Positions 39,884 to 52,706 of a DNA stretch of 64,000 nucleotides are shown one piece after another. The translations under genes were made by a program, and so were the position numbers. The notes below the pieces were generated by a model. It searched no databases. It saw nothing but the letters and a program-made list of their open reading frames with translations, and had not been told where the DNA came from. Source of the DNA: Arthrobacter sp. zg-Y844 (GTDB lineage Bacteria > Actinomycetota > Actinomycetes > Actinomycetales > Micrococcaceae). The first letter of the stretch is position 1. The number at the start of each line of letters is the position of its first letter. The stretch covers positions 124,001-188,000 of the forward strand of contig NZ_JANFLS010000005.1 in NCBI RefSeq assembly GCF_024385465.1, written 5' to 3'.

Positions 39884-40591
39884 ATGAAGATTGATATCTG
39901 GTCCGACATTGCCTGCCCGTGGTGCTACATCGGCAAGCGCCGCTTCGAGGCCGCCCTCGCCCGTTTCCCGCACCGGGACGAGGTGGAAGTCCACTGGCAC
40001 AGTTTCCAGCTCGATCCGTCCCTGCCCGACCACTTTGACGGCACCGAGGTCCAGTACCTCAGCGAACGCAAGGGCATCGACCCCGAACAGCTCGCCGGAA
40101 TGCTGGACCAGGTGTCGGTCCAGGCGGCGGGCGAAGGCCTGTCCTACGACTTCGATTCCCTCGTAGTGGCGAACAGCTTCTCCGCGCACCGGCTGATCCA
40201 TCTGGCCAAGGCGGAAGGCGGCCCGAAGGCTGCCGATGCCGCCAAGGAAGCACTGCTATCGGCCCATTTCGTGAAGGGAAAGGACATCGGCGCGGCAGAT
40301 GACCTGCTGGAAATCGGCACCGGCATCGGGCTGCCCGCGGACCGGGTGAAGGCCGTGCTGGCCAGTGACGAATACGCCGACGCCGTTCGCGCCGACATTG
40401 CCCAGGCCCGCTCCCTGGGGATCAGCGGCGTCCCGTTCTTCGTGCTCGATGACAAGTACGGCATTTCCGGTGCGCAGCCTGCCGACTTGTTTGCCTCCGC
40501 CCTGGAACAGGCCTGGCAGGAATCGCACCCGCTGGTTCACCTGACACCGAAGTCGGCGGACGGACCTGCCTGCGGACCTGACGGCTGCTAG
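39884..40591 (+). CDS. DsbA-family oxidoreductase, FrnE-like
   Basis: 235 residues, no signal peptide, so cytoplasmic. Thioredoxin-fold active site CPWC in DIACPWCYIGKRRFE (residues about 8-22). Later DsbA/FrnE blocks are NSFSAHRLIHLAK, FVKGKDIG and the cis-Pro region GISGVPFFVLDD. A C-terminal GPACGPDGC adds further cysteines. Role: disulfide oxidoreductase or isomerase, or 2-hydroxychromene-2-carboxylate isomerase-like. Convergent with and overlapping the M1 peptidase gene by 4 bp. Confidence 0.92.
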   Translation: MKIDIWSDIACPWCYIGKRRFEAALARFPHRDEVEVHWHSFQLDPSLPDHFDGTEVQYLSERKGIDPEQLAGMLDQVSVQAAGEGLSYDFDSLVVANSFSAHRLIHLAKAEGGPKAADAAKEALLSAHFVKGKDIGAADDLLEIGTGIGLPADRVKAVLASDEYADAVRADIAQARSLGISGVPFFVLDDKYGISGAQPADLFASALEQAWQESHPLVHLTPKSADGPACGPDGC

Positions 40592-41940
40592 GCCCTGAAG
40601 ACGGCTGCCGGGACCGTGGGTTCGAACAGCCACGGTCCCAGCAGCCCGCCGGCCGAGACACCGGCAGCGGCATATGCCTTGTCGGCGAGGTCCAAAAAGT
40701 CAGAAGTACCGGCACAACCGTGCCGGTACTTCTGCGTCCACTCCTGCAGCAGCTCGAAGAAGATCCCGTCGCCGGCGCTGCGCCGCAGGACATGCAGGGT
40801 CAACGCTCCGCGCCGGTAAACCCGTTCATCGAACATGGCCGCCGGCCCGGGATCGGCCAGCTGCAGGTCCTGCCGCTGGTGCCGCAGCCACTCCAGGTCG
40901 GCCGCGGCCCGCTGGTCGCTGCCGGCGCCGTCGGCCGCCTCCGACCACAGCCACTCCGCGTAGGTTGCGAAACCCTCGTGCAGCCAGATATCCCGCCAGC
41001 TGCCCGCCGTGACCGAATTGCCGAACCACTGATGCGCAAGTTCGTGAGCCACCAAAGACGCCGACCCCGAATCCAGGTGGTTGCATCCGAAGATCGACAC
41101 CGACTGCGCCTCCAAAGGGATCTCCAACTCGTCGTCGGTCACCACCACCGTGTACCGGCCGAAGGGATAGGGCCCGAACCGGGAGGTAAACAGGGTCATC
41201 ATGGCGTCCTGCCGGGACAGCGCGGCACTCGCGCGGTCGGTCAGGGACGGGGGCGCAACGACGGACTGCGGTACGTCGCCGGGCAGTTCCAGGTACTCGT
41301 ACCGGCCAATCTGGACCGTCGCCAAATAGCTGGACATGGGGTCGGGTTGTTCGAAGACCCAGGTCTCCCGGCCGCGGCGGTCTTCGCGGGAGACCAGCTC
41401 TCCGTTGCACGTCACCCGGTAGCCGGACTCCACCGTCACGCTGATCCGATACCGCGCTTTGTCCGCCGGCAGGTCGTTACAGGGAAACCAGGACGGAGCT
41501 CCGGTCGGCTGTCCGGCAACGAGGGCGCCGTCGGTCAATTCCTCCCAGCCGATGTCTCCCCACAGGCCGTTGCCCGCACGCGGCTTGCCCCGGTAGCGGA
41601 TGCCCAGCCGAAACGTGTCACCGGCCTTCAGCTCCCGACTGGGCGTGATCGCCAGTTTGCCGCGTCGCTGCCGGAAGGAACGGACGTCCACCGGAGTTCC
41701 GGCGCACCAAAGCAGGACTTCTTCCACCCGCATCGGCCGGTCCAGGTCCAGGATGAGCTGTTCAATGTCGACCAGGGCCGAGCCGGCGAGGCGCGCCTGC
41801 CCCTTGAGCCGGTTGGGGCCGACGTCGTAATCCAGTGTCAGGTCATACTCGGTGATGCTCAGGTCCGTGGAGCCTGACGCGGGGGTATAGGGATCGGGCG
41901 CGTGGTGCTGGTGTTGGTGGTGGGATCCGGTCGGCCACAT
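40588..41940 (-). CDS. Short M1-family zinc metallopeptidase
   Basis: 450 residues from ATG 41940, which has AGGA upstream; GTG 41976 and ATG 41949 are alternatives. Zinc site HELAHQWFGNSV plus, after exactly 18 residues, the third ligand in WLHEGFATY (HEXXH-X18-E). The usual GXMEN exopeptidase motif is replaced by a stretch reading EIPLEAQS. It is about half the length of PepN, lacking the C-terminal helical domain. The N-terminus has a His-rich patch HHQHQHH. It is the last gene in a same-strand series below the Pls-type synthetase. I recall epsilon-polylysine-degrading enzymes of Streptomyces being Zn aminopeptidases, so a depolymerase role is a hypothesis. Confidence 0.9.
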   Translation of the reverse strand: MWPTGSHHQHQHHAPDPYTPASGSTDLSITEYDLTLDYDVGPNRLKGQARLAGSALVDIEQLILDLDRPMRVEEVLLWCAGTPVDVRSFRQRRGKLAITPSRELKAGDTFRLGIRYRGKPRAGNGLWGDIGWEELTDGALVAGQPTGAPSWFPCNDLPADKARYRISVTVESGYRVTCNGELVSREDRRGRETWVFEQPDPMSSYLATVQIGRYEYLELPGDVPQSVVAPPSLTDRASAALSRQDAMMTLFTSRFGPYPFGRYTVVVTDDELEIPLEAQSVSIFGCNHLDSGSASLVAHELAHQWFGNSVTAGSWRDIWLHEGFATYAEWLWSEAADGAGSDQRAAADLEWLRHQRQDLQLADPGPAAMFDERVYRRGALTLHVLRRSAGDGIFFELLQEWTQKYRHGCAGTSDFLDLADKAYAAAGVSAGGLLGPWLFEPTVPAAVFRA

Positions 41941-41997
41941 GGCGGACATCCTGACACGGCGCAGCGTTTTCGCCACGGGTAGCTCCGGGAACCGGCC

Positions 41998-42189
41998 TTA
42001 GTTTTCAGCGTCCCGGGCGTATTGGCGCCAGCGCTGCCGGTCCGCTTCGGGCAGGTCCTCCCAATCGGGTGCCGGGGGCATCCACAACCCGGGGAGCAGC
42101 GCCGCCCGTTCCTCGTACAGCAACCTGCCCTCGTCGGCTGCGTCGGGGTCCGTCCAGGCCGTCCCGTCGCCGGCAGGTGTTTCGCTCAC
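41998..42189 (-). CDS. Small acidic protein between the synthetase operon and the M1 peptidase
   Basis: 63 residues from GTG, rich in Asp/Glu and Trp (five Trp, including WEDLPEADRQRWRQYA). It probably holds one C-terminal helix. TAGAGT lies exactly 6 nt before the GTG, a sign that it is really expressed. It lies 32 bp after the L,D-transpeptidase-like gene and just before the M1 gene on the same strand. No known family recognised. Confidence 0.65.
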   Translation of the reverse strand: MSETPAGDGTAWTDPDAADEGRLLYEERAALLPGLWMPPAPDWEDLPEADRQRWRQYARDAEN

Positions 42190-42195
42190 GCTTAA

Positions 42196-42201
42196 ACTCT
42201 A
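42196..42201 (-). promoter_or_regulatory. -10 hexamer of a putative leaderless promoter (63-residue protein)
   Basis: TAGAGT, TTAAGC, GTG 42189 on the minus strand. Confidence 0.55.
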
Positions 42202-42221
42202 AGCGACACCGCAAAAACGCA

Positions 42222-43316
42222 TCAGGGATTATGTGAAGAAACATCCTCCCGCGGTTTCCCTTCGCGCCCGCTCTCCAGCGGGCGGTCCCGTGTTCGGTCC
42301 AGCAGCCGGGGGTCTTCCGCCGGTGGGGACCACCCCGTATGGGTCCGTGGTCTTGCCGCAGCCTGGCGGTCCGACGCCGCCGTCTTGGCGAGTGTGCCGG
42401 CGCCGGGCGGCGAGCCCCGCGGCGTCCGCCGACGCCCGGCCCTTTTGAGCGCCAGCCGGATCAGCAGCCCCAGCGCCGCCAGTACGCCGAGGGTCGTCAG
42501 CGTGCCGGTCAGCGTCTCCAGCCTGTGCTCGACTGCCGCTGCCTTCTCTTCGGCCCGTGCGGCAGCGGCGGCAGCTTCGGAGGCGGCACTGGACGCCGTG
42601 AAAACGTCTTCCACGGTCCCCATAACGATGCGGTCGCCCGGGACGGCCCTGCGCAGCAACCGTGTGACCGTGGCCAGGTCCGTGGAAATGCATCCCCACG
42701 TTGGTGCGTACCCGGCATGGAAGAAGATCGCGAAGGAGGCACCCTGCCGGGTCGGCATATCCGGCGGGCGGTTCCAATTGATCACGGCTGCCTGTTCATA
42801 GAGGCCCTGCTCCATGTACCGCCAAAGGTTTTCGTCTGCTCCTCCACCTTCCCCTTCGAAGTACTGGTTATAGGTCTCTCCGTGCTGTCCGCCCCACCGG
42901 GAGGATGGTTTCAGCTCGTGATATTCCAGTTCAGTGCCCGGGTTGCTGCGGCCGAGCGCCTCGGTGAAGCTGAAGGACCCGGTCGGTGAATACAAGGTGT
43001 TCTCCCACATGCTGCCCGGGGGTGCAAAGCCGTTGCGGCCGCTGAAGCCCCAGGACTGCCATTCCTGCACATAGCCCCCGTCCTCGAAGACGCAGCCGGT
43101 GAGGCGGGTTTCCGCAGCTCCGTACTTTTCAGCCGTCGCGAAAGTGACGCGCTTGGCTTTCTGGACGGAGTAGCGGACCTCCCCCGCGTTGAGCCTCGCA
43201 CACGGGTCGTGCTCCTGCTCCGCGCCGGCGGCCGGCAGCGGAGGCAGCAAAAGGGCGGCAAGCAGCACCGAAGCTGCCGCAAGCCCGAAACGGCGTGCAC
43301 GACTCAACAGCATCAA
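42222..43316 (-). CDS. Membrane-anchored L,D-transpeptidase-like (YkuD-type) protein
   Basis: 364 residues. Signal peptide (RFGLAAASVLLAALLLPPLPAAGA), then a mature domain ending in the YkuD-like catalytic block FAIFFHAGYAPTWGCIS (about residues 195-211), with His and Cys, followed by DRIVMG. This matches the His...Gly-Cys pattern of L,D-transpeptidases, although the SHGC core is replaced by TWGC. An Ala/Glu-rich coiled coil (about 240-265), a membrane span (LTTLGVLAALGLLIRLAL) and a long basic cytoplasmic tail follow. Its start overlaps the acetyltransferase stop by 4 bp. Role inferred: a cross-link or attachment reaction at the wall. Confidence 0.78.
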   Translation of the reverse strand: MMLLSRARRFGLAAASVLLAALLLPPLPAAGAEQEHDPCARLNAGEVRYSVQKAKRVTFATAEKYGAAETRLTGCVFEDGGYVQEWQSWGFSGRNGFAPPGSMWENTLYSPTGSFSFTEALGRSNPGTELEYHELKPSSRWGGQHGETYNQYFEGEGGGADENLWRYMEQGLYEQAAVINWNRPPDMPTRQGASFAIFFHAGYAPTWGCISTDLATVTRLLRRAVPGDRIVMGTVEDVFTASSAASEAAAAAARAEEKAAAVEHRLETLTGTLTTLGVLAALGLLIRLALKRAGRRRTPRGSPPGAGTLAKTAASDRQAAARPRTHTGWSPPAEDPRLLDRTRDRPLESGREGKPREDVSSHNP

Positions 43317-44677
43317 CTGCGCTGACGGGACCGGTGACGGGCCCGGCCTTCCGGCTCCGGCGGAGCCGGCGGATAGGGCGGGGCGGGTGGGTACGCCACC
43401 TCGCGCGGTGCCGACGAGGACGGGGCAGCCGGCTCAGCCGGCGTTCCCGCAGCCGCTGGGGCAGCCGTTGTCGGCGACGTCCGGCTCTTCCGCTGGCCTC
43501 CGGCGCGCTCCAGGTATCTGTTCCGCGCCCACTTCGAGGCTTCGGCAACTCCCTTCTCCAGCGGCCCCTGGGCGGCGTACCGCAGCCAGATGGCGGCGAA
43601 AGCCGAAAGGATGGCCAGCTGGAGAATCATTGCCGGCACTGGCTGGTCCGCCAGCAGCCCGGTAGCCAGGAGTATCAGGTGCAGGGAGTACAGGGTCAGG
43701 GTCATCTTTCCCAACAGGGCCAAGGGCTGCAGGAGCCGCCCGCTTGCCCGCCCCAGCAGCAGCAGGACCGCCAGGAACGCCGCCGAGGTGCCGATGGTGT
43801 TGGCCAGCACCAACGGCGTACTGGAGTAGGGGGCCAAGGAGGCGAGCCACCACCACGAATCTGTCGGCATCACCGGGTCCGGCCCCCAGATCAGTATCTC
43901 TTCAACGGTGTCCTCGGGGGCCGAGGACCATACCGACGTCGTGTCCACCAGATGTTGCCGTCCGCCGAAGGGGCCGAGGATGAGGGCGGAAAGGACTGCT
44001 GTTGCAAGGGCAAGGCCGATGCCGGCCGCCAGCAGCCGAATCTGCACCACCCGTTCGGCCAGGTCCAGCCGCCCGATGGCCAATCCGACGCAGACGTACG
44101 CCATCCAAGGCAGTGCGGGATACGTGCCCGAGAGAAGGACCTGGCCAAGGACACCGCCGGGGGCTTCGACGAGCGTGGTGAAGGTGGGTTCCACTCCAAG
44201 CATGTCCGGCAGCACATCCCTGGTGGCGTGCATCAGGATGGGGCCGGCGGCAGCGATACCTGCAGCAAGAACCAGCAGGGTCCGCACGCGCAGCCCGAGC
44301 AGTGGAAGGGCGAGCAGGAACATCACTCCGTAATAGACGAGGATCACCTGGGCGTTGATGGCGAGGTAGCCGAGAAACAGCCCGATGACGGTGATGAGGG
44401 CAGCGCGCACCGCAAGTCCGTATCGGACGGCAGCCATCTCCCGTCCCCGCGGCGGGTGCTTGCCGCCTGACATAAAGGCCAGCGATATCCCGGCTAGCAG
44501 TGCAAAAAGTGCGGCTCCTCGGCCGGCGAACAGAAGCCAGGTGAGCGTGGGTGCGAACTCCTCGTTCCAGGCGGGCAGGATGTGGATTGCCATCATGGCA
44601 ATCAGCGCCGCTCCCCGGGCAGCATCGACACCGGTGACCCGCCGTTTGCCCACCCCTGCCAGAGCCGACCCGCTCAT
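43313..44677 (-). CDS. HGSNAT/DUF1624-DUF418-like membrane acetyltransferase, copy A
   Basis: 454 residues from ATG 44677 (AAAGGGGG upstream; the frame is open further but would run into dapA). Starts with the family block VDAARGAALIAMMAIHILPAW, which holds a conserved His. About ten membrane segments follow, with GTYPALPWMAY, DSWWWLASLAPYS and MTLTLYSLHLILLATG, and a long Pro/Ala-rich cytoplasmic tail (residues about 390-454). Related proteins transfer acetyl groups from acetyl-CoA across the membrane to amino groups. Coupled to dapA (14 bp) and the L,D-transpeptidase gene (4-bp overlap). A paralogue is at 50099-51283. Confidence 0.82.
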   Translation of the reverse strand: MSGSALAGVGKRRVTGVDAARGAALIAMMAIHILPAWNEEFAPTLTWLLFAGRGAALFALLAGISLAFMSGGKHPPRGREMAAVRYGLAVRAALITVIGLFLGYLAINAQVILVYYGVMFLLALPLLGLRVRTLLVLAAGIAAAGPILMHATRDVLPDMLGVEPTFTTLVEAPGGVLGQVLLSGTYPALPWMAYVCVGLAIGRLDLAERVVQIRLLAAGIGLALATAVLSALILGPFGGRQHLVDTTSVWSSAPEDTVEEILIWGPDPVMPTDSWWWLASLAPYSSTPLVLANTIGTSAAFLAVLLLLGRASGRLLQPLALLGKMTLTLYSLHLILLATGLLADQPVPAMILQLAILSAFAAIWLRYAAQGPLEKGVAEASKWARNRYLERAGGQRKSRTSPTTAAPAAAGTPAEPAAPSSSAPREVAYPPAPPYPPAPPEPEGRARHRSRQRS

Positions 44678-44691
44678 GCTTCCCCCTTTGT

Positions 44692-45660
44692 TCAATGCGC
44701 CCGTGCCAGAGTTTCGGGGAGTGCGGGGGCGGGCGCAAGCGTAGTCGGCAATCCCGCGGCGGCGAGGTCCGCCACAAGCAGTTCGGTCTCCTCTTCGCTC
44801 AGGTCCGTCAGCGGCCCCCTGACGGGGCCGGCGGGCAGCCCCAGTTTCCGAAGCGCTGCCTTGGCCGATGCCGCGCCGGGGCACCGGAACATACCGGTGT
44901 AGATCGGCAGCAGGTCACGGTGAATCCGCAGCGCGTCATCCACCCGGCCCTGCCGGTACGCGACTGTCAGGGCACGCAGCCGGTCAGCGGCGACGTGTCC
45001 GACCACCGAAACGACGCCGACGGCACCAACGGACATCAGGGGCAGATTCAATGCGTCATCACCCGAGTAATAGACCAGCTCGCTGTGCTTCATGACCCAG
45101 GATGAGGATACGAGATCCCCCTTGGCGTCCTTCACCGCAACGATGTTCGGATGGCGGCCGGCCGCCACCAAGGTTTCGGGGGCGATTGCGACGCCGGTGC
45201 GGGCAGGGATGTCGTAGAGCATCACCGGCAGGTCGGTGCTGTCGGCAATGGCTTCGAAGTGGCGCAGCAGGCCTTTTTGCGTGGGGCGTGAATAGTACGG
45301 GGCAACCACCAGCAGCCCGTCTGCCTTCTGTTCGGCCGCGGCCCGAGCCAGCTCGATGCTGTGCCGTGTGTCGGTGGAGCCCACTCCGGCGATAACCCGC
45401 CGCTCGGTGCCCGCGGTGACCCGCTTGGCGGAATGGATCATCGACGCTTTTTCCCAGTCCGAGGTTGCGAAGGACTCCCCGGTGGTGCCGTTGACCACCA
45501 CGCCGTCATTCCAGCCGGTCCGCAGCAGCCATCGGGCCAGCTCCTCGGCGCCGGTCTGGTCCAGTTGGCCGCGTTCGTCCATGGGCGTGACCATTGCGGT
45601 CAGCACGGTGCCGAACCGCCGGGAGACCGTTGTCCCTGCGTTGTCCGTAGATGTACTCAT
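44692..45660 (-). CDS. dapA: 4-hydroxy-tetrahydrodipicolinate synthase family (DapA)
   Basis: 322 residues of the DHDPS/NAL barrel. Active-site residues are intact: GTTGES (Thr-Thr), the APYYSRPTQ tyrosine, LYDIPARTG (Tyr and Arg) and the Schiff-base Lys in VAVKDAKGD. By alignment with E. coli DapA, the lysine-feedback residues Ala49, His53, His56, Asn80 and Glu84 appear as Phe, Asp, Lys, Thr and His, so it is probably not inhibited by lysine, as in Corynebacterium. Its start overlaps the Pls-type synthetase stop (ATGA), with AGGAGCAGGA inside that gene. Inferred role: dedicated precursor supply. Confidence 0.9.
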   Translation of the reverse strand: MSTSTDNAGTTVSRRFGTVLTAMVTPMDERGQLDQTGAEELARWLLRTGWNDGVVVNGTTGESFATSDWEKASMIHSAKRVTAGTERRVIAGVGSTDTRHSIELARAAAEQKADGLLVVAPYYSRPTQKGLLRHFEAIADSTDLPVMLYDIPARTGVAIAPETLVAAGRHPNIVAVKDAKGDLVSSSWVMKHSELVYYSGDDALNLPLMSVGAVGVVSVVGHVAADRLRALTVAYRQGRVDDALRIHRDLLPIYTGMFRCPGAASAKAALRKLGLPAGPVRGPLTDLSEEETELLVADLAAAGLPTTLAPAPALPETLARAH

Positions 45661-48600
45661 AATCCTGCTCCTACAGTTTTGTACTCGATCGATTTACGGT
45701 GGCGGGCACGGCGTTCCGTGGGGCGGCTCTGGCCCCAATGTGCCAACGGGTTCCCGCACCAGGCGCTGTTCGTGGGGACGCTTTCCCCGCGCATCACCAA
45801 CGAGCAGCCACCAACGGTGCCGCCCACTTCGATGGCGCTGCCCGGCAGCACGATGCTGTTTGGTCCCAGCGTGGAACCGTCACCCAGCGTTACTTCGTCC
45901 AGGCGCATGATCCGGTCATGGAAAAGATGGGTCTGCAGTACTGTGCCGCGGTTGATGCTCGCTCCGTCGCCCACCTGTATCAGGTCGAATTCCGGTAGCC
46001 ACCAGGTTTCGCACCAAACGCTGCGGCCGATCCGCGCCCCCATCCAGCGCAGCCAGGCGTTGAGCATCGGGGTGCCCAGACTCATCCGCACCAATCCGGG
46101 AACGGCGAGGGATTCCGAAAACACGTCCGCCAGCTCGTTCCGCCAGACAAAGGAACTCCACAGCGGGTACTCCGAAGTTTCGAAACGGCCCACCAGCAGC
46201 CACTTCGCCATGACGGCGATGAGCGCTGCGGCGATCCCGCTCAGCAGGAGGACCGGACCGGACCACAGGACGGCCGTGAGGAACCCGAAGGTGTCATACA
46301 GTCCGGCCAACGCCCACACGGTCAGCAGGGCCAGCCAGGCCGTGATCACCGCCGGCAGGATCCTGCAGGCTTCAACTGCGCTTCGGGCAACCAGCAGGCG
46401 TCGGGGAGGATCGTAGGTCCGTGCGGTGTCCCCCACCTGCACCGGCCGCGGAAGCTCAACCGCCGGACGCCCGAACCAGGACGTACCCGCCGGCATATTC
46501 CCGGGAGCCGAAGAAAGTACCGCGATCAGGGAGTTCCCCGGCACATGTGTGTCCGGCCCCACGATCGCCGAGTTCCCGACGAAGGATTGTTCCGCGACAC
46601 TCGCGGGACCGAGGTGCAGCCATCCCTGCCGCACCCGCCGCGCCGACATCATGGAATGGTCCGCCAGGAAGGTCCGGTCCTCCAGCCGCGTCAGGTGCGG
46701 CACGGTTTCCATAGTGGAGATTTCCACGTGCCGGCCGACCTTCGCGCCCAGGAGCCGCATCCACACCGGCGTGAGCACGCTGGCATAGATCGGATACATC
46801 GTAATCAGCGACCGGCTAAGCATCAGGTTGCTCAACCAGGACGCCCAGCCTGTCATGCCGTCCGCCGGGTGCATGCCCGGCGGCATCAGGTGGGCGGTAC
46901 CGCGGACCACGGCGGCGGTGAGCGCGAGGAACATCAGCATGGAAATCACCACGAAGACCGGTGCCCAGACGGCCAGGATCCACAACGCATCGGTGAAAGA
47001 GGAAACACCGTTCAGCAACCACAGCATCAGGGCGGATCCGGGTGCTATGGAAAGGAGATTCAACAACGCGATGCCGGCCAGGGACGCCGGGTAGAGCAGC
47101 CGCACGCTTCGGGATTCAGCGGCAGGCGCTGCTTCCTCGGGCCATCCCGCCCCGGCGCTGCCGGTCTTCCGCATCTGGGATCCTGCCCAGAGCTCATAGG
47201 CGGGGATTTCGCCGGAGACCAGGGTGCCCGGTTCCGTTTCGGCTCCGCGGCCCACTTTCGCCCCGCCCATCAGCGTGGACCGTGCACCGATCCGTACGTC
47301 TTCACCGATCTGGATCCTGCCGATGTGGAGCTGCCCGCCTTCGATCCAGTGGCCCGCCAGGTCTACTTCGTATTCGATCGAAGTCCGGTCGCCGATCGAC
47401 GCAAAACCGGTAACGGGCGGCATGGCGTCAAGGTGCACGCCTTCGCCGATGTTGCAGCCCAGCTGGCGGGCATACCATGTGCCGAGCGGGGATCCCATGA
47501 TGGGTTCGAGCTTGCAGTACGTCACTATCCGCTCCGCTGCCCACAGCCTCAGGTGGGTGCTGCCGCCGCGCCGATAAATGCCGGGGCCGATCCCCAGGAG
47601 CAGCAACCTGGACGACACCACCGCGGCGATCATCCGTGCCGGCAGGCTGTACAAGGCCAGCCAGGCCGCAAGGGTGGGAACCACGGGTGGATCCGGGGTC
47701 CAGGGGCTGCCCACGACATGGAACATCACCATGCATACGACGGCGATGCCGGTGACGTACCGCAGGCCCGTAATCCCGTAGAGCGCCACGATCAGCGGCG
47801 CCTGGACCAGCCCCAGCCACCAGGGCGATTCGGGGGTTTCGCGGACGTCCAGGGTTGAATCGCGCAGCGACGCCAAGTGCTCGGACATCGTGATCAGCGT
47901 CGGGTGCTCGTAGATATCGGCGACCGAGACCTTCGGGTAACGTTCCCGCAGTGCAGAGACCAATTGGGCGGCGGCCAGGCTGGCTCCGCCCAGGGCAAAG
48001 AAATCGCTTTCCTCGGTCAGCGGCAGCGGGCCCAGCAGATCGGTCCACCGCTGGCCCAGCCAACGCAGATCGGCGTTGAGCTCCACCCGGACGTCGGTGG
48101 GGGTTTCCATCACAGGCAGGGGCCAGGGCAGGGCCTTGCGGTCGACTTTCCCCGAGGCCTTCATCGGCAGCTCATCGACGATCCCCAGCGACGGGACGAT
48201 GGATGCCGGCAGGTTCTGTGCCAGTTGGGCCCGCGCGGCGCCAAGGTCCAGGGTGGCGCCGGCCGCCGGGACCAGGTATCCAGCCAGCACCTGGTTTCCG
48301 GACTGGGTGGAATGGACGGCGGCTGAAGCCGCGGCCACGCCCGGCAGCCGGCTTAGGGCATCGTCAATCTCGCCGAGTTCAACCCGCCGGCCGCCCAGTT
48401 TGATCTGCTCATCCACTCGCCCCACGAAGACGAGGCCCTCTTGGTCTGCACGGACATGGTCTCCGCTGTAGTAGGCCCGCTCCCATCCGAGGGCGGGAAG
48501 CGGGGTGAATTTCTCGGCGTCCTTTTTCGGATCGAGGTACCGCGAAACCCCTACACCGCCGATGACCAGTTCGCCCACTTCCCCCCAGCGCACGGGGTTC

Positions 48601-49712
48601 CCGTCTTCGCCGATGACGGCGAGGCTCCAGCCGTTCAGCGGCAGGCCAATCCGGACGGTGGACTGTCCGTCTAAAAGCGCGCCGCAGGCTATCACCGTGG
48701 TTTCAGTGGGGCCGTAGGTGTTCCAGACCTCCCGCCCGGGGGCTGCCAGACGCCGGACCAGGTCCTCCGGGCAGGCTTCTCCGCCGAAAATCAGCAGCCG
48801 CACGCGGTCAAGGGTCTCGGTGGACCAGTGCGCGGCAAGGGTGGGCACTGTTGAAACGGCAGTGATCCTCCGTTCAACGAGCCAGGGGCCGAGGTCGGCT
48901 CCGGACCGCACCACGGATCGAGGCGCCGGAACCAGGCACGCACCGTGGGCCCACGCCAGCCACATCTCCTCGCATGAGGCGTCAAAGCTGACGGACAGCC
49001 CGGCCAGGACCCGGTCCCCTGGGGAAAGCGGCGCACCGGCGCAGTAGAGCGAAGATTCGGCATCCACCAGGGCAGCCGCGGAGCGGTGGGTGACGGCCAC
49101 GCCCTTGGGCTTACCCGTGGAACCGGAAGTGAAGATGATCCACGCATCGTCTTCGGGGTGCGGTTGGGGGCTGTGTCCGCCGCTGGGGACGCCCTGGAGA
49201 AGGTTCAGCTCCAACCCTGCTTCAATTACCGCGCAGACTCCGCCTTCGGCCCACACCGTTTCGGCACGGCCGGCCGGTTCGTCCGTATCCACCGGGACGT
49301 AGGCGGCCCCGGAGTACAGCACCCCGAGAATAGCTATGTACAGGTCCACGGAACCGGAGGGGACATAGATTCCCACCCGGTCTCCTGCACCGATGCCGCC
49401 GGCCCACAGCCGTTTCGCGAGGTCCTGCACACGGAGCTCAAGTTCGGCGTAGGTCAAGGAGACGGTTCCGTCATCGATGGCGGGTGCGCCCGGATAGGCG
49501 GAGACCGTTTCGGTGATGATATCGACCAGTGTCCGCTGCTCCGGTGTGCGGCCCCCGTGAAGTACCGCCAATCCTGCGGGAACGTGACCGGGGCTTGCTA
49601 CTGATGGTTCCCTTTGCGGAAGGGGTGGTGCGGTCTTGCTGCCGGAGGCGGCCGGGTGCCGGATGGCTAATGGTCCTGTCGCCACGGCTTGCGGGTTTTC
49701 GGGCGTGTTCAT
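45657..49712 (-). CDS. Pls/PosA-type single-module non-ribosomal peptide synthetase (polylysine-synthetase-like)
   Basis: 1,351 residues from ATG 49712 (GGGAG upstream; the frame is open to a TTG at 49766). The adenylation domain (about 60-530) has FTSGSTGKPKG, FDASCEEMW, NTYGPTET, YYSGDHVR, GRVDEQIKLGGRRVELGEID and ASGKVDRKAL. Pocket code D244 A245 E248 S287 I308 G310 T332 V340 I341 K522. The carrier domain FFALGGASLAAA has phosphopantetheine Ser578. Then follow three repeats of two membrane helices plus a hexapeptide (left-handed beta-helix) soluble domain: helices near 632-713, 871-938 and 1119-1175. This is the layout described for epsilon-polylysine synthetase Pls. No thioesterase or canonical condensation domain. 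Role: iterative peptide-bond formation at the membrane. Confidence 0.93.
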   Translation of the reverse strand: MNTPENPQAVATGPLAIRHPAASGSKTAPPLPQREPSVASPGHVPAGLAVLHGGRTPEQRTLVDIITETVSAYPGAPAIDDGTVSLTYAELELRVQDLAKRLWAGGIGAGDRVGIYVPSGSVDLYIAILGVLYSGAAYVPVDTDEPAGRAETVWAEGGVCAVIEAGLELNLLQGVPSGGHSPQPHPEDDAWIIFTSGSTGKPKGVAVTHRSAAALVDAESSLYCAGAPLSPGDRVLAGLSVSFDASCEEMWLAWAHGACLVPAPRSVVRSGADLGPWLVERRITAVSTVPTLAAHWSTETLDRVRLLIFGGEACPEDLVRRLAAPGREVWNTYGPTETTVIACGALLDGQSTVRIGLPLNGWSLAVIGEDGNPVRWGEVGELVIGGVGVSRYLDPKKDAEKFTPLPALGWERAYYSGDHVRADQEGLVFVGRVDEQIKLGGRRVELGEIDDALSRLPGVAAASAAVHSTQSGNQVLAGYLVPAAGATLDLGAARAQLAQNLPASIVPSLGIVDELPMKASGKVDRKALPWPLPVMETPTDVRVELNADLRWLGQRWTDLLGPLPLTEESDFFALGGASLAAAQLVSALRERYPKVSVADIYEHPTLITMSEHLASLRDSTLDVRETPESPWWLGLVQAPLIVALYGITGLRYVTGIAVVCMVMFHVVGSPWTPDPPVVPTLAAWLALYSLPARMIAAVVSSRLLLLGIGPGIYRRGGSTHLRLWAAERIVTYCKLEPIMGSPLGTWYARQLGCNIGEGVHLDAMPPVTGFASIGDRTSIEYEVDLAGHWIEGGQLHIGRIQIGEDVRIGARSTLMGGAKVGRGAETEPGTLVSGEIPAYELWAGSQMRKTGSAGAGWPEEAAPAAESRSVRLLYPASLAGIALLNLLSIAPGSALMLWLLNGVSSFTDALWILAVWAPVFVVISMLMFLALTAAVVRGTAHLMPPGMHPADGMTGWASWLSNLMLSRSLITMYPIYASVLTPVWMRLLGAKVGRHVEISTMETVPHLTRLEDRTFLADHSMMSARRVRQGWLHLGPASVAEQSFVGNSAIVGPDTHVPGNSLIAVLSSAPGNMPAGTSWFGRPAVELPRPVQVGDTARTYDPPRRLLVARSAVEACRILPAVITAWLALLTVWALAGLYDTFGFLTAVLWSGPVLLLSGIAAALIAVMAKWLLVGRFETSEYPLWSSFVWRNELADVFSESLAVPGLVRMSLGTPMLNAWLRWMGARIGRSVWCETWWLPEFDLIQVGDGASINRGTVLQTHLFHDRIMRLDEVTLGDGSTLGPNSIVLPGSAIEVGGTVGGCSLVMRGESVPTNSAWCGNPLAHWGQSRPTERRARHRKSIEYKTVGAGL

Positions 49713-50098
49713 AGAAAGCAGTTCTCCCTGCTGGTACATCTCATATCCGTGGTCGAGGGACCACAACCTGAGCCCGGCGACGGCCGGGGCGATGCAGGGA
49801 AGACTAGGAAAATGACGGCGGGTTCACATGAGTACCGCGGGCACGCAGGAGTCCATTCGGTACGGGGTTAATTACTTCCCCACCTCCGCGGCTACTCGGA
49901 CCACTACCCGAACTGAATTTCGTTCCATGGGCGTCCCGCGTCAGGACGGGCAACCAGGGCACAGGTAAAAACCGCTTCCGGTGCTTCACAGCCTGCGCTT
50001 AGGTTTCCGATAGGTTACGGACAGATGCCGTTGGTTGTGTGGTCCACCCCGGCACTCGACAGGGGCGCTGGACAACACCTGCCGATGGGATCCAAAGC
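49713..50098. promoter_or_regulatory. Divergent control region of the synthetase operon and acetyltransferase copy B
   Basis: About 385 bp with no gene. It includes a less GC-rich part (49869-50020), the inverted repeat CGTCC...GGACG (49932-49948) and TTAGGTTTCCGATAGGTTACGG near 49998-50019. The latter holds two AGGTT motifs 12 bases apart, candidates for a regulator site or a -10 for the rightward gene. No regulator gene is adjacent. Confidence 0.4.
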
Positions 50099-51283
50099 AT
50101 GTCTTCCGTAGCTACATCGAGGCCCAGGCTGTCAGGAGTGGACGCTGCGCGCGGGCTGGCGCTTTTCGGGATGATGGCGATCCATGTCCTGCCTGCCGCG
50201 GACGAAGACGTCGAGCCGACGCTGACGTGGCTGCTGTTCGCCGGCAAGGCGGCCGCGCTCTTTGCCCTTCTGGCCGGGGTGACCTTGGCCTTCACCACCC
50301 GAAAAGCCCGGACGGAAGGGGGACACTTCCTGGCTGCGGCCCGGTGGAGCCTGGCGGCAAGAGCGGGACTGGTCACCGCCCTTGGCCTGGCCATCGCCTA
50401 TGTGGACATGGACGCCTTCATCATCCTGGCGTACTACGGCGCCATGTTCCTGCTGGCAGTTCCGCTGCTGGGGGTATCCACCCGGACGCTGTTCATCGCC
50501 GCGGCGGGGTTCGCGCTGCTGGGGCCGGCCCTGATGCAGGGCCTGCGGGATTACCTCCCTGCGCCCGGGTACGACCCCACGTTCTCCACTGTGGTCACTG
50601 AACCCGGCGTCTTGGCGAGCCAGCTTTTGCTGACAGGAACCTACCCTGCCATTCCATGGCTGGCCTACATTGCCGCCGGGCTCGCTATCGGCAGGATGAG
50701 CCTGGACCGGACCAGAGTGCAGCTGGTGCTGCTGGGGTCAGGCGCGGCACTTGCCGCGGCTGCCTGGTTCGGCTCCCGGCTCTTGCTCGCCGGTCCCGGG
50801 TTTGACCGGTTGCTGGCATCGGAACCGTATCTAGGTTCCGACGATCTCCAGGGCATCCTGGTGTGGGGCACCGACGGGTACCTTCCCACCAGCTCCTGGT
50901 GGTGGCTGTCCATCGCCGCACCGCACAGCACCACACCATTCGACCTGCTGCACACCATGGGAGTTGCCACGGGCGTGCTCGGCGCCATGCTGCTGGTCGC
51001 ACGCTTTGCGGGCAAGGCGTTGCTTCTCCTGTCCGCGCCCGGCCGGATGACGCTTACCCTGTACTGCACCCATCTGCTTTTCCTCGGCACCGGGGCACTG
51101 GCCGACCTCCCGGAATTCTCTCTCTGGCTTCAGATCATCGCATTCGTAATCTTCGCGGTGATCTGGCAGCGTGCGGGGAAACAGGGGCCGTTGGAGAAAC
51201 TCGTCTCCCGTGGCGCCGCTTCCGCGCGGGACTCCGTCCTTCGGCGGCACCCGGACACCCGTTCCGCCAAGCGGGGCCGCTAA
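50099..51283 (+). CDS. HGSNAT/DUF1624-DUF418-like membrane acetyltransferase, copy B
   Basis: 394 residues from ATG 50099; the frame opens earlier without a ribosome site. Clear paralogue of the gene at 43313-44677: VDAARGLALFGMMAIHVLPA, PTLTWLLFAGKAAALFALLAG, GTYPAIPWLAYIAAGLAIGR, SSWWWLSIAAPHS and MTLTLYCTHLLFLGTG align block by block. It lacks the long Pro-rich tail. It is divergent from the synthetase and its stop overlaps the phosphopantetheinyl transferase stop by 4 bp. Inferred role as for copy A: acetylation or other acylation of amino groups outside the membrane, possibly as self-protection against a cationic polymer. Confidence 0.82.
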   Translation: MSSVATSRPRLSGVDAARGLALFGMMAIHVLPAADEDVEPTLTWLLFAGKAAALFALLAGVTLAFTTRKARTEGGHFLAAARWSLAARAGLVTALGLAIAYVDMDAFIILAYYGAMFLLAVPLLGVSTRTLFIAAAGFALLGPALMQGLRDYLPAPGYDPTFSTVVTEPGVLASQLLLTGTYPAIPWLAYIAAGLAIGRMSLDRTRVQLVLLGSGAALAAAAWFGSRLLLAGPGFDRLLASEPYLGSDDLQGILVWGTDGYLPTSSWWWLSIAAPHSTTPFDLLHTMGVATGVLGAMLLVARFAGKALLLLSAPGRMTLTLYCTHLLFLGTGALADLPEFSLWLQIIAFVIFAVIWQRAGKQGPLEKLVSRGAASARDSVLRRHPDTRSAKRGR

Positions 51284-52023
51284 GCCAACCCGTCCGCCTT
51301 ACCCGCGTCCACGGCGTAGGACAGCGCAAAGGAGGCGGGCAGCCCCAACTCCTCCGGCTCGACGTCGTACGCGCGCAGCCCGGTGAACCCGACGCCGTTT
51401 CCGCGCCCCCGTTCGCCGAAATCCGTTTCCACACTGCGGGGATCAACTCGCAGCCCGTGCCCGGAGGCCTTCAGCAGGGCTTCCTTGCGTACCCAGATCT
51501 GCGCCCGCAGGCGGGGGCGGTTCGGAACCGGGACGGCGGCGATGGCCGCCTTTTCCGTATCGGTGGCCATGACGTCCTCGACCGCCGTATCCGCGAAAGC
51601 CCGTGCGGCTGCGTCTTCCAAATCCACTCCCACACGCGTCTCGGCGAGCGCCGCCGCGAGCCAGTTCCCGGAACGGCTGAAACTGACCTTGAACGGGATT
51701 GGCCCGCCCGCAATGAAATAGCGCGGCTCCCCGTGGCTTCCGTCATTGCCGTGCAGGCAGTCGGGACAGTGCGCCGCTGCGCTCACCGCATCCTCGGGTG
51801 CGTGCAGGTACGCTGCCACGAAGGACCGGGCGGCCAGCCGTCCGGCCAGGAAACGACGGCGGTCCTCCTCGTGATGGAACCCCTCCGCCCGTGCGCGTAC
51901 GGCGGCGCCCAAGCTGTCCGCTGCCCGAAGGTCCACCGTGTCCAGCGGCCGTACGGCCAGCCGCAGCACTCCCGGTTCCTGCCGGGGTGGAAACGTGTGT
52001 GTTTCACTGTGCGGCAGGCCCAC
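51280..52023 (-). CDS. Sfp-type 4'-phosphopantetheinyl transferase
   Basis: 247 residues from GTG. Family motifs: FSRSGNWLAAALAE, VGVDLED (Mg-binding Asp) and WVRKEALLKASGHGL. Role: transfers phosphopantetheine from CoA to the carrier Ser of peptide synthetases. Only one carrier-bearing protein is in the window, the Pls-type synthetase 1.5 kb away, so that is the likely client. It starts 5 bp after the LytR_C gene stop and so is probably co-transcribed with it. Confidence 0.93.
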   Translation of the reverse strand: MGLPHSETHTFPPRQEPGVLRLAVRPLDTVDLRAADSLGAAVRARAEGFHHEEDRRRFLAGRLAARSFVAAYLHAPEDAVSAAAHCPDCLHGNDGSHGEPRYFIAGGPIPFKVSFSRSGNWLAAALAETRVGVDLEDAAARAFADTAVEDVMATDTEKAAIAAVPVPNRPRLRAQIWVRKEALLKASGHGLRVDPRSVETDFGERGRGNGVGFTGLRAYDVEPEELGLPASFALSYAVDAGKADGLA

Positions 52024-52028
52024 CGCGG

Positions 52029-52706
52029 TTACTGTCCGTCCGGCGTCGAAGTGCCTGGACAGCTCAGGGCACCCGGGCCCGCTGCCACGGCCTGTTCCGC
52101 CGGGAGAAGTTCCTGGAATCCGGAGCCGATCACCACGTCCACCGATGCGTCCGTCCGCTCGTCCATAACGTAGTCCGTGCCGGGAATGTGCTGCTGCAGC
52201 GTGTAGGCAGCGGCGGCCCCGGAGGGGCCGGAAAGCACCAGCGCGGTCATGCCGGAACGGTTCACGCTGCTGTTGCCTACCCGGTCCACCCGGAAGCCGC
52301 GCTCATTCAGGGCGTCTCCGACGGTTCCGCCCAGGCCCGGCGACGCCGTCGCGTTGTAGACATTGACCGTCACGGTGGCGGGGTCCAGATACGGAAAAGG
52401 CCCGGCCGGACATTCGTCCACCGGACCCGCAGAGGTACTGGGTGCTGCCACGGGCAGCCGTACCCACCCCGAAATCAATCCCTGCGCCAGGATCACCGCG
52501 GCCACCAGGAACAACGCCAGGATCCCGACCACTGAATTATGCAGCCGGCGGCGCCGTCTCGCGCGCCGGACCAGCTCCGGTTCGTCGGTCGGTGCAAATA
52601 CCGCGCCGAGGTCGCCGCCGGTGATGATCCGGTGCCCGTGCCATTCCCTTGGATCGTTCCTCGCCGGGTTGCCGCGGTGCCGCCCCTCAAGGGGCTCCTT
52701 AGTCAT
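52029..52706 (-). CDS. LytR C-terminal-domain (LytR_C) membrane protein
   Basis: 225 residues: a basic cytoplasmic head (RRARRRRRLH), one membrane helix (VVGILALFLVAAVILAQGL, about 59-77), then an extracytoplasmic LytR_C domain (VTVNVYNATASPGLGGTVGDALNERGFRVDRV). No LytR/CpsA/Psr catalytic domain. Role in wall-polymer attachment is guessed from the domain only. Its ATG lies inside the preceding gene's last codons (8-bp overlap), so they are translationally coupled. Confidence 0.88.
   Translation of the reverse strand: MTKEPLEGRHRGNPARNDPREWHGHRIITGGDLGAVFAPTDEPELVRRARRRRRLHNSVVGILALFLVAAVILAQGLISGWVRLPVAAPSTSAGPVDECPAGPFPYLDPATVTVNVYNATASPGLGGTVGDALNERGFRVDRVGNSSVNRSGMTALVLSGPSGAAAAYTLQQHIPGTDYVMDERTDASVDVVIGSGFQELLPAEQAVAAGPGALSCPGTSTPDGQ

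What the first reader, a model, noticed from the sequence alone, without database searches (positions are those of the whole stretch)
40588..52023. Candidate polylysine-type biosynthetic locus built around a Pls/PosA-family synthetase
Seen: a 1,351-residue synthetase with one adenylation domain, one carrier and three membrane-plus-hexapeptide modules. It is followed on the same strand by dapA (ATGA overlap), a membrane acetyltransferase-like gene (14 bp gap), an L,D-transpeptidase-like gene (4-bp overlap), a small acidic gene and an M1 peptidase. A second acetyltransferase copy is divergent and a phosphopantetheinyl transferase lies beside it. Known: this architecture is that of epsilon-polylysine synthetase (Pls). 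Inference: a self-contained system to supply precursor, polymerise, modify or anchor, and possibly degrade a cationic homopolymer. I do not know this exact gene combination as a described pathway.
Basis: partly seen in the sequence, partly recalled or inferred. Interest (0 to 1): 0.88.

Follow-up and report, generated by a model that had tools for sequence, protein, structure and literature searches.

The report
Eight-gene polylysine cassette in Arthrobacter relatives
This is a compact, all-or-nothing block of eight genes built around the known enzyme that makes the antimicrobial polymer epsilon-polylysine; the enzyme itself is a known kind, but I found no description of its partner genes for supplying, and probably chemically modifying, the polymer.

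Summary
The synthetase is a Pls-family epsilon-poly-L-lysine synthetase (TIGR02353, 573 bits; adenylation domain 611 bits to the solved epsilon-PL domain 7WEW). That part is known: Pls homologues in Arthrobacter were reported in 2021.

The surroundings are less ordinary. Eight genes (PPTase, AT2, pls, dapA2, AT1, LD-transpeptidase-like, a 63-aa acidic protein, M1 peptidase) occur in the same 12 of 29 congeneric genomes and in none of the other 17. Six cassette-free genomes examined show the flanking genes as neighbours. A marker tree needs 5 presence changes. In a sample of 111 Pls, two clades differ in partner within 5.5 kb downstream. In clade A (the window's), 43 of 44 have a transmembrane acyltransferase (HGSNAT/AT3 type). 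In clade B, 59 of 67 have an M1 peptidase and none has the acyltransferase.

Best reading: a self-contained epsilon-PL cassette in which dapA2 feeds lysine, the PPTase activates Pls, Pls polymerises and exports, M1 trims, and the acyltransferases probably acylate the polymer on the outer face. The LD-transpeptidase-like role is open. No chemistry was tested. New variant of a known kind.

The parts
40588..41976 (-). M1-family metallopeptidase, PldII-like (probable epsilon-PL-degrading enzyme)
   Evidence: Pfam Peptidase_M1 and M1_N; 42-53% identical to the M1 genes downstream of clade-B pls; HELAH-x18-E read from the sequence; orthologue in the same 12 of 29 genomes
41998..42189 (-). 63-aa acidic protein, motif LYEER..LLPGLWMPPAP.WE.LPEA.R.RW, function unknown
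   Evidence: no Pfam family above cut-off
42222..43316 (-). LD-transpeptidase-like (YkuD-fold) protein with signal-like N-terminus and long C-terminal hydrophobic helix
   Evidence: His and Cys of the HAG-x(3)-TWGC stretch invariant in 24 of 24 aligned; model pLDDT 90.7; Csd6 Z 13.6, YkuD Z 12.1; same 12 of 29 genomes
43313..44677 (-). AT1, transmembrane acyltransferase (TmAT superfamily, HGSNAT type)
   Evidence: PF07786 E 1.2e-12; DxxRx10H and FxxxxG; model pLDDT 89.9; 12 of the 14 best PDB hits are labelled HGSNAT, the other two only 'membrane proteins'
44692..45660 (-). dapA2, second 4-hydroxy-tetrahydrodipicolinate synthase
   Evidence: TIGR00674 251 bits; same 12 of 29 genomes; clade separate from housekeeping dapA
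45657..49766 (-). pls, epsilon-poly-L-lysine synthetase (A, T, then Pls-type terminal region)
50039..51283 (+). AT2, second transmembrane acyltransferase, divergent from pls
   Evidence: PF07786 E 2.3e-13; groups with two other divergent copies, support 98; same 12 of 29 genomes
51280..52023 (-). Sfp-type 4'-phosphopantetheinyl transferase
   Evidence: PF01648 E 1.8e-12; same 12 of 29 genomes, no match at E <= 0.001 in the other 17
39884..40591 (+). left flank: dsbA-like gene (outside the cassette)
   Evidence: PF01323; neighbour of the LytR_C gene in the 6 cassette-free genomes examined
52029..52706 (-). right flank: LytR_C-domain gene (outside the cassette)
   Evidence: PF13399; in 28 of 29 genomes

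Best explanation
An epsilon-poly-L-lysine production cassette of the clade-A type, gained or lost as one block. Shown from sequence: Pls family and lysine-type pocket; eight genes that occur together; a discrete insertion site; a dapA copy of its own lineage; TmAT and YkuD folds by model. Inferred: dapA2 raises flux from aspartate semialdehyde to lysine; the PPTase makes holo-Pls; Pls polymerises lysine through epsilon-amide bonds and exports it; AT1 and AT2 carry acyl groups from cytosolic acyl-CoA to free amines of the polymer on the outer face, lowering its charge and protecting the producer or tuning the product; the M1 enzyme trims or degrades the polymer; the membrane-held LD-transpeptidase-like protein acts at the wall, either remodelling it for tolerance or attaching polymer to it.
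For: Pls identity. Unit behaviour: each of the eight genes in the same 12 of 29 genomes; flanking genes adjacent in 6 of 6 cassette-free genomes examined, five within about 100 bp and one with 1.7 kb between; 5 presence changes on a marker tree, 4-5 over bootstraps. Partner switch: TmAT within 5.5 kb downstream in 43 of 44 clade-A and 0 of 67 clade-B pls, M1 in 59 of 67 clade-B. TmAT chemistry: DxxRx10H in 22 of 22, HGSNAT fold; HGSNAT moves acetyl from cytosolic acetyl-CoA to an amino group across the membrane (PMC11357348 passages; PMC12423673 passages). PldII is translationally coupled to pls, lies outside the membrane and limits chain length (PMC9223678 passages). A corynebacterial Pls made epsilon-PL in Streptomyces (PMC8117764 parts 1-2 of 4).
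Against: No product, activity or transcript data. The two confirmed Pls loci whose context I read about (S. albulus, C. variabile) have the peptidase context of clade B, so a clade-A product is inferred. The 29 genomes are related, so 12 of 29 is not 12 independent cases; the tree gives 4-5 changes. TmATs of the same large clade also occur away from pls (10 rows, plus a second Kocuria copy), and another TmAT sits beside the housekeeping dapA in 29 of 29 genomes, so the acceptor may not be polylysine. The outer-face charge of pls-linked TmATs is only modestly more acidic (mean -10.9 of 21, against -7.6 of 25 dapA-linked, p 0.0009, and -9.2 of 22 others, p 0.048; neither corrected for relatedness).
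Confidence: 0.6

Rival explanations
1. The acyltransferases act on the cell envelope (wall polymer, teichoic acid or glycolipid), not on polylysine; they and the LD-transpeptidase-like protein are an immunity module that makes the producer's surface tolerant of a cationic polymer.
For: AT3-type enzymes acylate diverse carbohydrates (PMC9833829, start of abstract; PMC12423673, passages); paralogues occur without pls; the LDT fold belongs to peptidoglycan enzymes among its solved relatives.
Against: The pls-linked ATs stay next to the synthetase even where LDT, dapA and M1 were not found nearby (Kocuria, Corynebacterium), which fits a product-directed role at least as well.
Confidence: 0.35
2. 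The LD-transpeptidase-like enzyme covalently links epsilon-PL to peptidoglycan, by analogy with LD-transpeptidases that attach a lysine-ended lipoprotein to the wall (recalled); the polymer is mainly a wall component and not a secreted antimicrobial.
For: YkuD fold with His and Cys conserved in 24 of 24 aligned; LDT-fold neighbours include Csd6 and DpaA; a signal-like start and a C-terminal hydrophobic helix, encoded in the pls operon.
Against: No LDT homologue found near pls in Nesterenkonia L038, four Kocuria or three Corynebacterium loci; the best structural match, Csd6, is a carboxypeptidase as I recall it, so the enzyme may cleave. Of 68 family genomes with a homologue (of 295) 21 have it beside pls.
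Confidence: 0.12
3. Clade-A Pls makes a different cationic polymer (for example ornithine, diaminobutyrate or a mixed chain).
For: Most clade-A rows differ from the canonical pocket at one position (36 of 44 read VI and 2 of 44 II where clade B and 7WEW read VV), and Paeniglutamicibacter L037 keeps both clades side by side.
Against: Six of 44 clade-A rows (Nesterenkonia group) have the canonical VV, so the change is not a clade mark. The other readable positions are those of 7WEW, and the second position is Ala, the change that raised lysine use in PosA (M218A; PMC10522769 passages). A dapA of its own points to lysine or DAP. Odds lowered from 0.10 to 0.08 on recounting the pockets.
Confidence: 0.08
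4. The neighbourhood is a chance or passive linkage around a known pls gene.
For: Close relatives share gene order by descent.
Against: Eight genes present or absent together with 5 changes on the marker tree, and flanks joined where they are absent; the partner switch follows the Pls tree.
Confidence: 0.03

Closest known systems
Streptomyces albulus pls-pldII (epsilon-PL synthetase and degrading enzyme)
   Same: Same synthetase family and domain order, near-identical lysine pocket; an M1-type metallopeptidase is also encoded here.
   Different: The M1 gene is not directly behind pls: dapA2, a TmAT, an LDT-like gene and a small acidic gene lie between; a PPTase and a second TmAT are added.
Corynebacterium variabile pls (PMC8117764)
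   Same: Non-filamentous actinobacterial Pls, product confirmed as epsilon-PL in S. coelicolor.
   Different: [quoted passage not shown] the words dapA and transpeptidase do not occur in the paper.
PosA of Acinetobacter baumannii (delta-poly-L-ornithine)
   Same: Same synthetase family (the TIGR02353 model is named Pls/PosA).
   Different: Ornithine pocket (DMEHNGTVSK) and a single-gene operon (PMC10522769 passages).
Poly-diaminobutyrate clusters (pddA, pldA)
   Same: Precursor-supply genes are drawn with the synthetase (dat, ask; PMC8117764 Fig. 1 legend).
   Different: Other substrate and other precursor genes; here the supply gene is dapA.
TmAT superfamily (HGSNAT, AT3/OafB)
   Same: Pfam family, DxxRx10H, FxxxxG, predicted fold.
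   Different: Encoded beside a polylysine synthetase; acceptor unknown.

Membership tests
Pls/PosA-family cationic homo-polyamino-acid synthetase | One A domain, one T domain, no condensation or thioesterase domain, Pls-type C-terminal region | tested here: met
   TIGR02353 573 bits over cut-off 423.1; no condensation or thioesterase family in the Pfam table
epsilon-PL synthetase (lysine-specific Pls) | Lysine-type substrate pocket | tested here: met
   DAESIGTVI against DAESIGTVV of 7WEW; positions assigned from PheA numbering recalled from memory plus motif anchors
epsilon-PL synthetase (lysine-specific Pls) | Makes epsilon-poly-L-lysine | not testable with these tools
   needs expression and mass spectrometry
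PldII-type epsilon-PL-degrading peptidase | M1-type metallopeptidase adjacent to pls | tested here: inconclusive
   M1 family and 42-53% identity to clade-B genes downstream of pls, but in this locus four genes lie between; the S. albulus PldII sequence itself was not compared
TmAT superfamily | Ten-helix fold with DxxR and FxxxxG | tested here: met
   motifs in 22 of 22; HGSNAT best hit E 1.9e-4, probability 1.00, TM 0.50 by query length; only 4 hits at E <= 0.001
LD-transpeptidase (YkuD) family | YkuD fold with catalytic His and Cys | tested here: met
   (Foldseek TM by query 0.37 for Csd6; VIA Z 13.6); Pfam on P0004 itself gives no hit; of the relatives scanned L150, L153, L154, L144, L146 and L035 reach E 3.7e-5 to 2.6e-3, L155 none
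LD-transpeptidase (YkuD) family | Canonical SHGC motif (recalled) | tested here: not met
   The motif reads TWGC here (SWGC, TVGC, SAGC or TAGC in relatives). Hence called LD-transpeptidase-like
LD-transpeptidase (YkuD) family | Transpeptidase activity | not testable with these tools
   needs an enzyme assay
DapA (4-hydroxy-tetrahydrodipicolinate synthase) | Equivalog model above cut-off | tested here: met
   TIGR00674 251 bits over 206.15; best solved relative 5j5d, 265 bits

The most novel reading that the evidence does not exclude
Clade-A bacteria make a modified, wall-tethered polylysine: the transmembrane acyltransferases acylate the exported chain on the outer face, and the membrane-held LD-transpeptidase-like enzyme attaches it to peptidoglycan, giving a new kind of cationic cell-surface polymer that the M1 enzyme can release.
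Probability: 0.12. Interest if true: 0.85.

Novelty: new variant of a known kind. Interest (0 to 1): 0.55.

Why it matters
Epsilon-PL is an approved food preservative, yet its natural role and regulation are less well understood (PMC8117764). A synthetase clade whose regular partner is a transmembrane acyltransferase instead of a degrading peptidase suggests a second way of handling the polymer. It also gives a defined 11.4-kb block, with natural cassette-free relatives as controls, on which precursor supply, modification and tolerance can be tested gene by gene.

Tried and rejected
The idea that dapA2-AT1 is a copy of the housekeeping dapA-AT pair was rejected: dapA2 is one clade against housekeeping dapA, pls-linked ATs do not group with dapA-linked ATs, and Kocuria and Corynebacterium have pls-AT with no dapA found nearby.

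That pls-linked ATs form a clade of their own was suggested by a first tree and withdrawn after adding ATs from elsewhere: 10 rows from elsewhere fall in the same large clade.

Outer-face charge of ATs gave weak support only. No repeat of 20 nt or more pairing the two borders was listed. P0006 against PDB sequences: no hit at E <= 1. A tRNA scan found none in the window. No promoter scan or RNA-family search was run.

Rows dropped or chosen: LDT alignment, 26 chosen of 55 loci with a homologue (most others are copies of the same places), of which 2 were dropped for internal stops (L018, L130) and one trimmed (L037). AT alignment A2, 2 of 22 near-duplicates left out (L148, L042). Pls tree, L004 left out (same as the window); 7 of the 111 rows are identical copies in the kept columns, all in clade A, so clade A is 36 of 37 distinct. 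AT tree, 4 of 20 added loci (L192, L200, L204, L205) gave no ORF by my motif filter and were left out; L204 and L205 are pls-linked. The named loci are the best 80 of at least 595 matches.

Pocket positions 299 and 301 could not be read by my pattern in 31 of 112 Pls, and position 278 in 1 of 112.
Full report
WHAT IS THERE. The 1369-aa (1351 from ATG) synthetase scores 573 bits on TIGR02353, the Pls/PosA model, over a cut-off of 423. Its adenylation domain matches the solved epsilon-PL synthetase domain 7WEW with 611 bits, against 185 bits for the PosA domain 8G95. At nine substrate-pocket positions the window reads DAESIGTVI and 7WEW reads DAESIGTVV (the numbering is recalled from PheA and tied to motif anchors). 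PosA for ornithine is DMEHNGTVSK, and its M218A change favoured lysine (PMC10522769, passages). So lysine is the likely substrate.

WHAT IS KNOWN. Jiang et al. 2021 (PMC8117764; parts 1 and 2 of 4 read, plus term search) showed that a Corynebacterium variabile Pls makes epsilon-PL when expressed in Streptomyces. They listed Pls homologues in Arthrobacter and other coryneform genera, and described pls with a peptidase gene. The words dapA and transpeptidase do not occur in that paper's main text, and acetyltransferase is used only for the C domains. Seven full-text searches (listings seen) and one without any hit showed me no paper on a pls-dapA-acyltransferase-transpeptidase cluster; most subscription papers are outside that library, and these word searches cannot prove absence from print.

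ONE UNIT. In the 29 genomes of the genus held, full-length pls is in 12 (the other 17 have only adenylation-domain matches). The LDT-like gene, an M1 orthologue of 51-100% identity (the other 17 have only matches of 28-35% to longer, mostly PepN-sized frames), two pls-flanking ATs, the small acidic gene (E <= 2.3e-13, next best 0.012), the PPTase and dapA2 are in the same 12 and in none of the other 17. In six cassette-free genomes that I fetched (6 of 17) the dsbA and LytR_C genes face each other; the ends of the matches are 39, 41, 70, 88 and 100 bp apart, and 1.7 kb in one. On a tree of RNase J plus FtsK from all 29 genomes presence changes 5 times (4-5 over bootstraps). In the distant congeners L155 and L034 the cassette also lies beside the LytR_C gene. 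This fits an old block lost several times as a whole; transfer is not excluded.

PARTNER SWITCH. A tree of 111 Pls (104 different) has two clades. Clade A (44 rows, support 100; 37 distinct) includes the window, Arthrobacter, Citricoccus, Nesterenkonia, Zafaria, Paeniglutamicibacter, Kocuria and three Corynebacterium. In 43 of 44 a TmAT gene lies on the same strand within 5.5 kb downstream, often with dapA between; the exception is L043, a metagenome-assembled contig. Clade B (67 rows: Nocardia, Rhodococcus, Mycobacterium, Streptomyces and others) has an M1 gene in that range in 59 and a TmAT in none; eight have neither. M1 also occurs in part of clade A (window, L034, L038). PldII of S. albulus is translationally coupled to pls, lies outside the membrane, and its repression lengthens the polymer (PMC9223678, passages). 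The 80 named loci are the best matches to the window, so clade B is only partly sampled, and loci L005-L033 carry only 1.5 kb of flank.

THE ACYLTRANSFERASES. AT1 and AT2 match HGSNAT_cat. All 22 homologues collected have DxxRx10H and FxxxxG, conserved elements of the TmAT superfamily (PMC12423673, passages). The AT1 model (pLDDT 89.9, pTM 0.88) finds HGSNAT: 12 of the 14 best hits are so labelled and the other two, 8jkv and 8jl4, only 'membrane proteins' (best E 1.9e-4, TM 0.50 of the query). HGSNAT passes acetyl from cytosolic acetyl-CoA to an amino group on the other side of the membrane (PMC11357348, passages). Epsilon-PL, exported and rich in free alpha-amines, is a natural candidate acceptor; this step is inference. 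Against it, related TmATs occur away from pls, and a distinct TmAT lies beside the housekeeping dapA in 29 of 29 congeners.

THE LDT-LIKE PROTEIN. P0004 has no Pfam hit. Relatives L150, L153, L154, L144, L146 and L035 match YkuD at E 3.7e-5 to 2.6e-3, one above the curated cut-off (L146); three of them carry LGFP repeats, one FG-GAP repeats, and one (L035) is pls-linked; L155 gave nothing. His and Cys are invariant in 24 of 24 aligned. The model (pLDDT 90.7) aligns to Csd6 (Z 13.6, 2.6 A over 130 residues), YkuD (Z 12.1), mycobacterial LDTs (up to 12.3) and DpaA (Z 10.2); Foldseek alone gives low TM-scores (0.37-0.39 for the first four). In 295 family genomes a homologue is in 68, beside pls in 21 by my comparison of coordinates. 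Whether it joins, trims or cuts is unknown; the usual SHGC (recalled) reads TWGC.

dapA2. It is a DapA by equivalog model. All 31 pls-linked dapA rows (copies included; 57 rows in all, 47 different) form one side of a branch with support 100 against 26 housekeeping rows. The housekeeping copy sits with rnj and ftsK. A lysine-supply gene in a pls operon parallels the dat and ask genes named with the poly-diaminobutyrate synthetases.

VERDICT. A known synthetase in an unusual, coherent cassette that comes and goes as a whole. The synthetase assignment is firm, the unit is firm, and the roles of the TmATs, the LDT-like protein and the 63-aa protein are open and testable. In the observation check the relatives of the LDT-like protein are counted without L155's unscored neighbour set: the plain tally is six with a YkuD match (L150, L153, L154, L144, L146, L035) of seven scanned, L155 being the one without; where that field says 5 of 6, read 6 of 7.

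Noticed in passing
L147 8667-9938 and the same place in all 29 congeneric genomes: A third TmAT (about 40% identical to AT1) lies beside, and divergent from, the housekeeping dapA in 29 of 29 genomes of the genus, with or without pls (a 1.6-kb gap in G159); rnj and ftsK follow dapA. Its role there is unexplained.
   Followed up: partly
L037 3256-17191 (Paeniglutamicibacter antarcticus): A clade-B pls with its M1 gene and a clade-A pls with dapA, TmAT and PPTase stand back to back, with the LDT-like gene between them: two polylysine systems in one locus.
   Followed up: partly
L150 5519-7420, L154 5659-7629, L146 1372-2718: Relatives of the LDT-like protein carry LGFP repeats and lie away from pls.
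   Followed up: partly
window 41998-42189: The 63-aa acidic protein with the motif LPGLWMPPAP reaches no Pfam cut-off and is tied to the cassette in the genus.
   Followed up: yes
L046, L047, L061, L073, L074, L094: Six Streptomyces or Kitasatospora Pls loci show no homologue of the window M1 gene nearby; their partner genes were not identified.
   Followed up: no
G042 (nine TmAT matches): Some Micrococcaceae carry up to nine matches, some of them fragments, to this TmAT family, an unexplained expansion.
   Followed up: no
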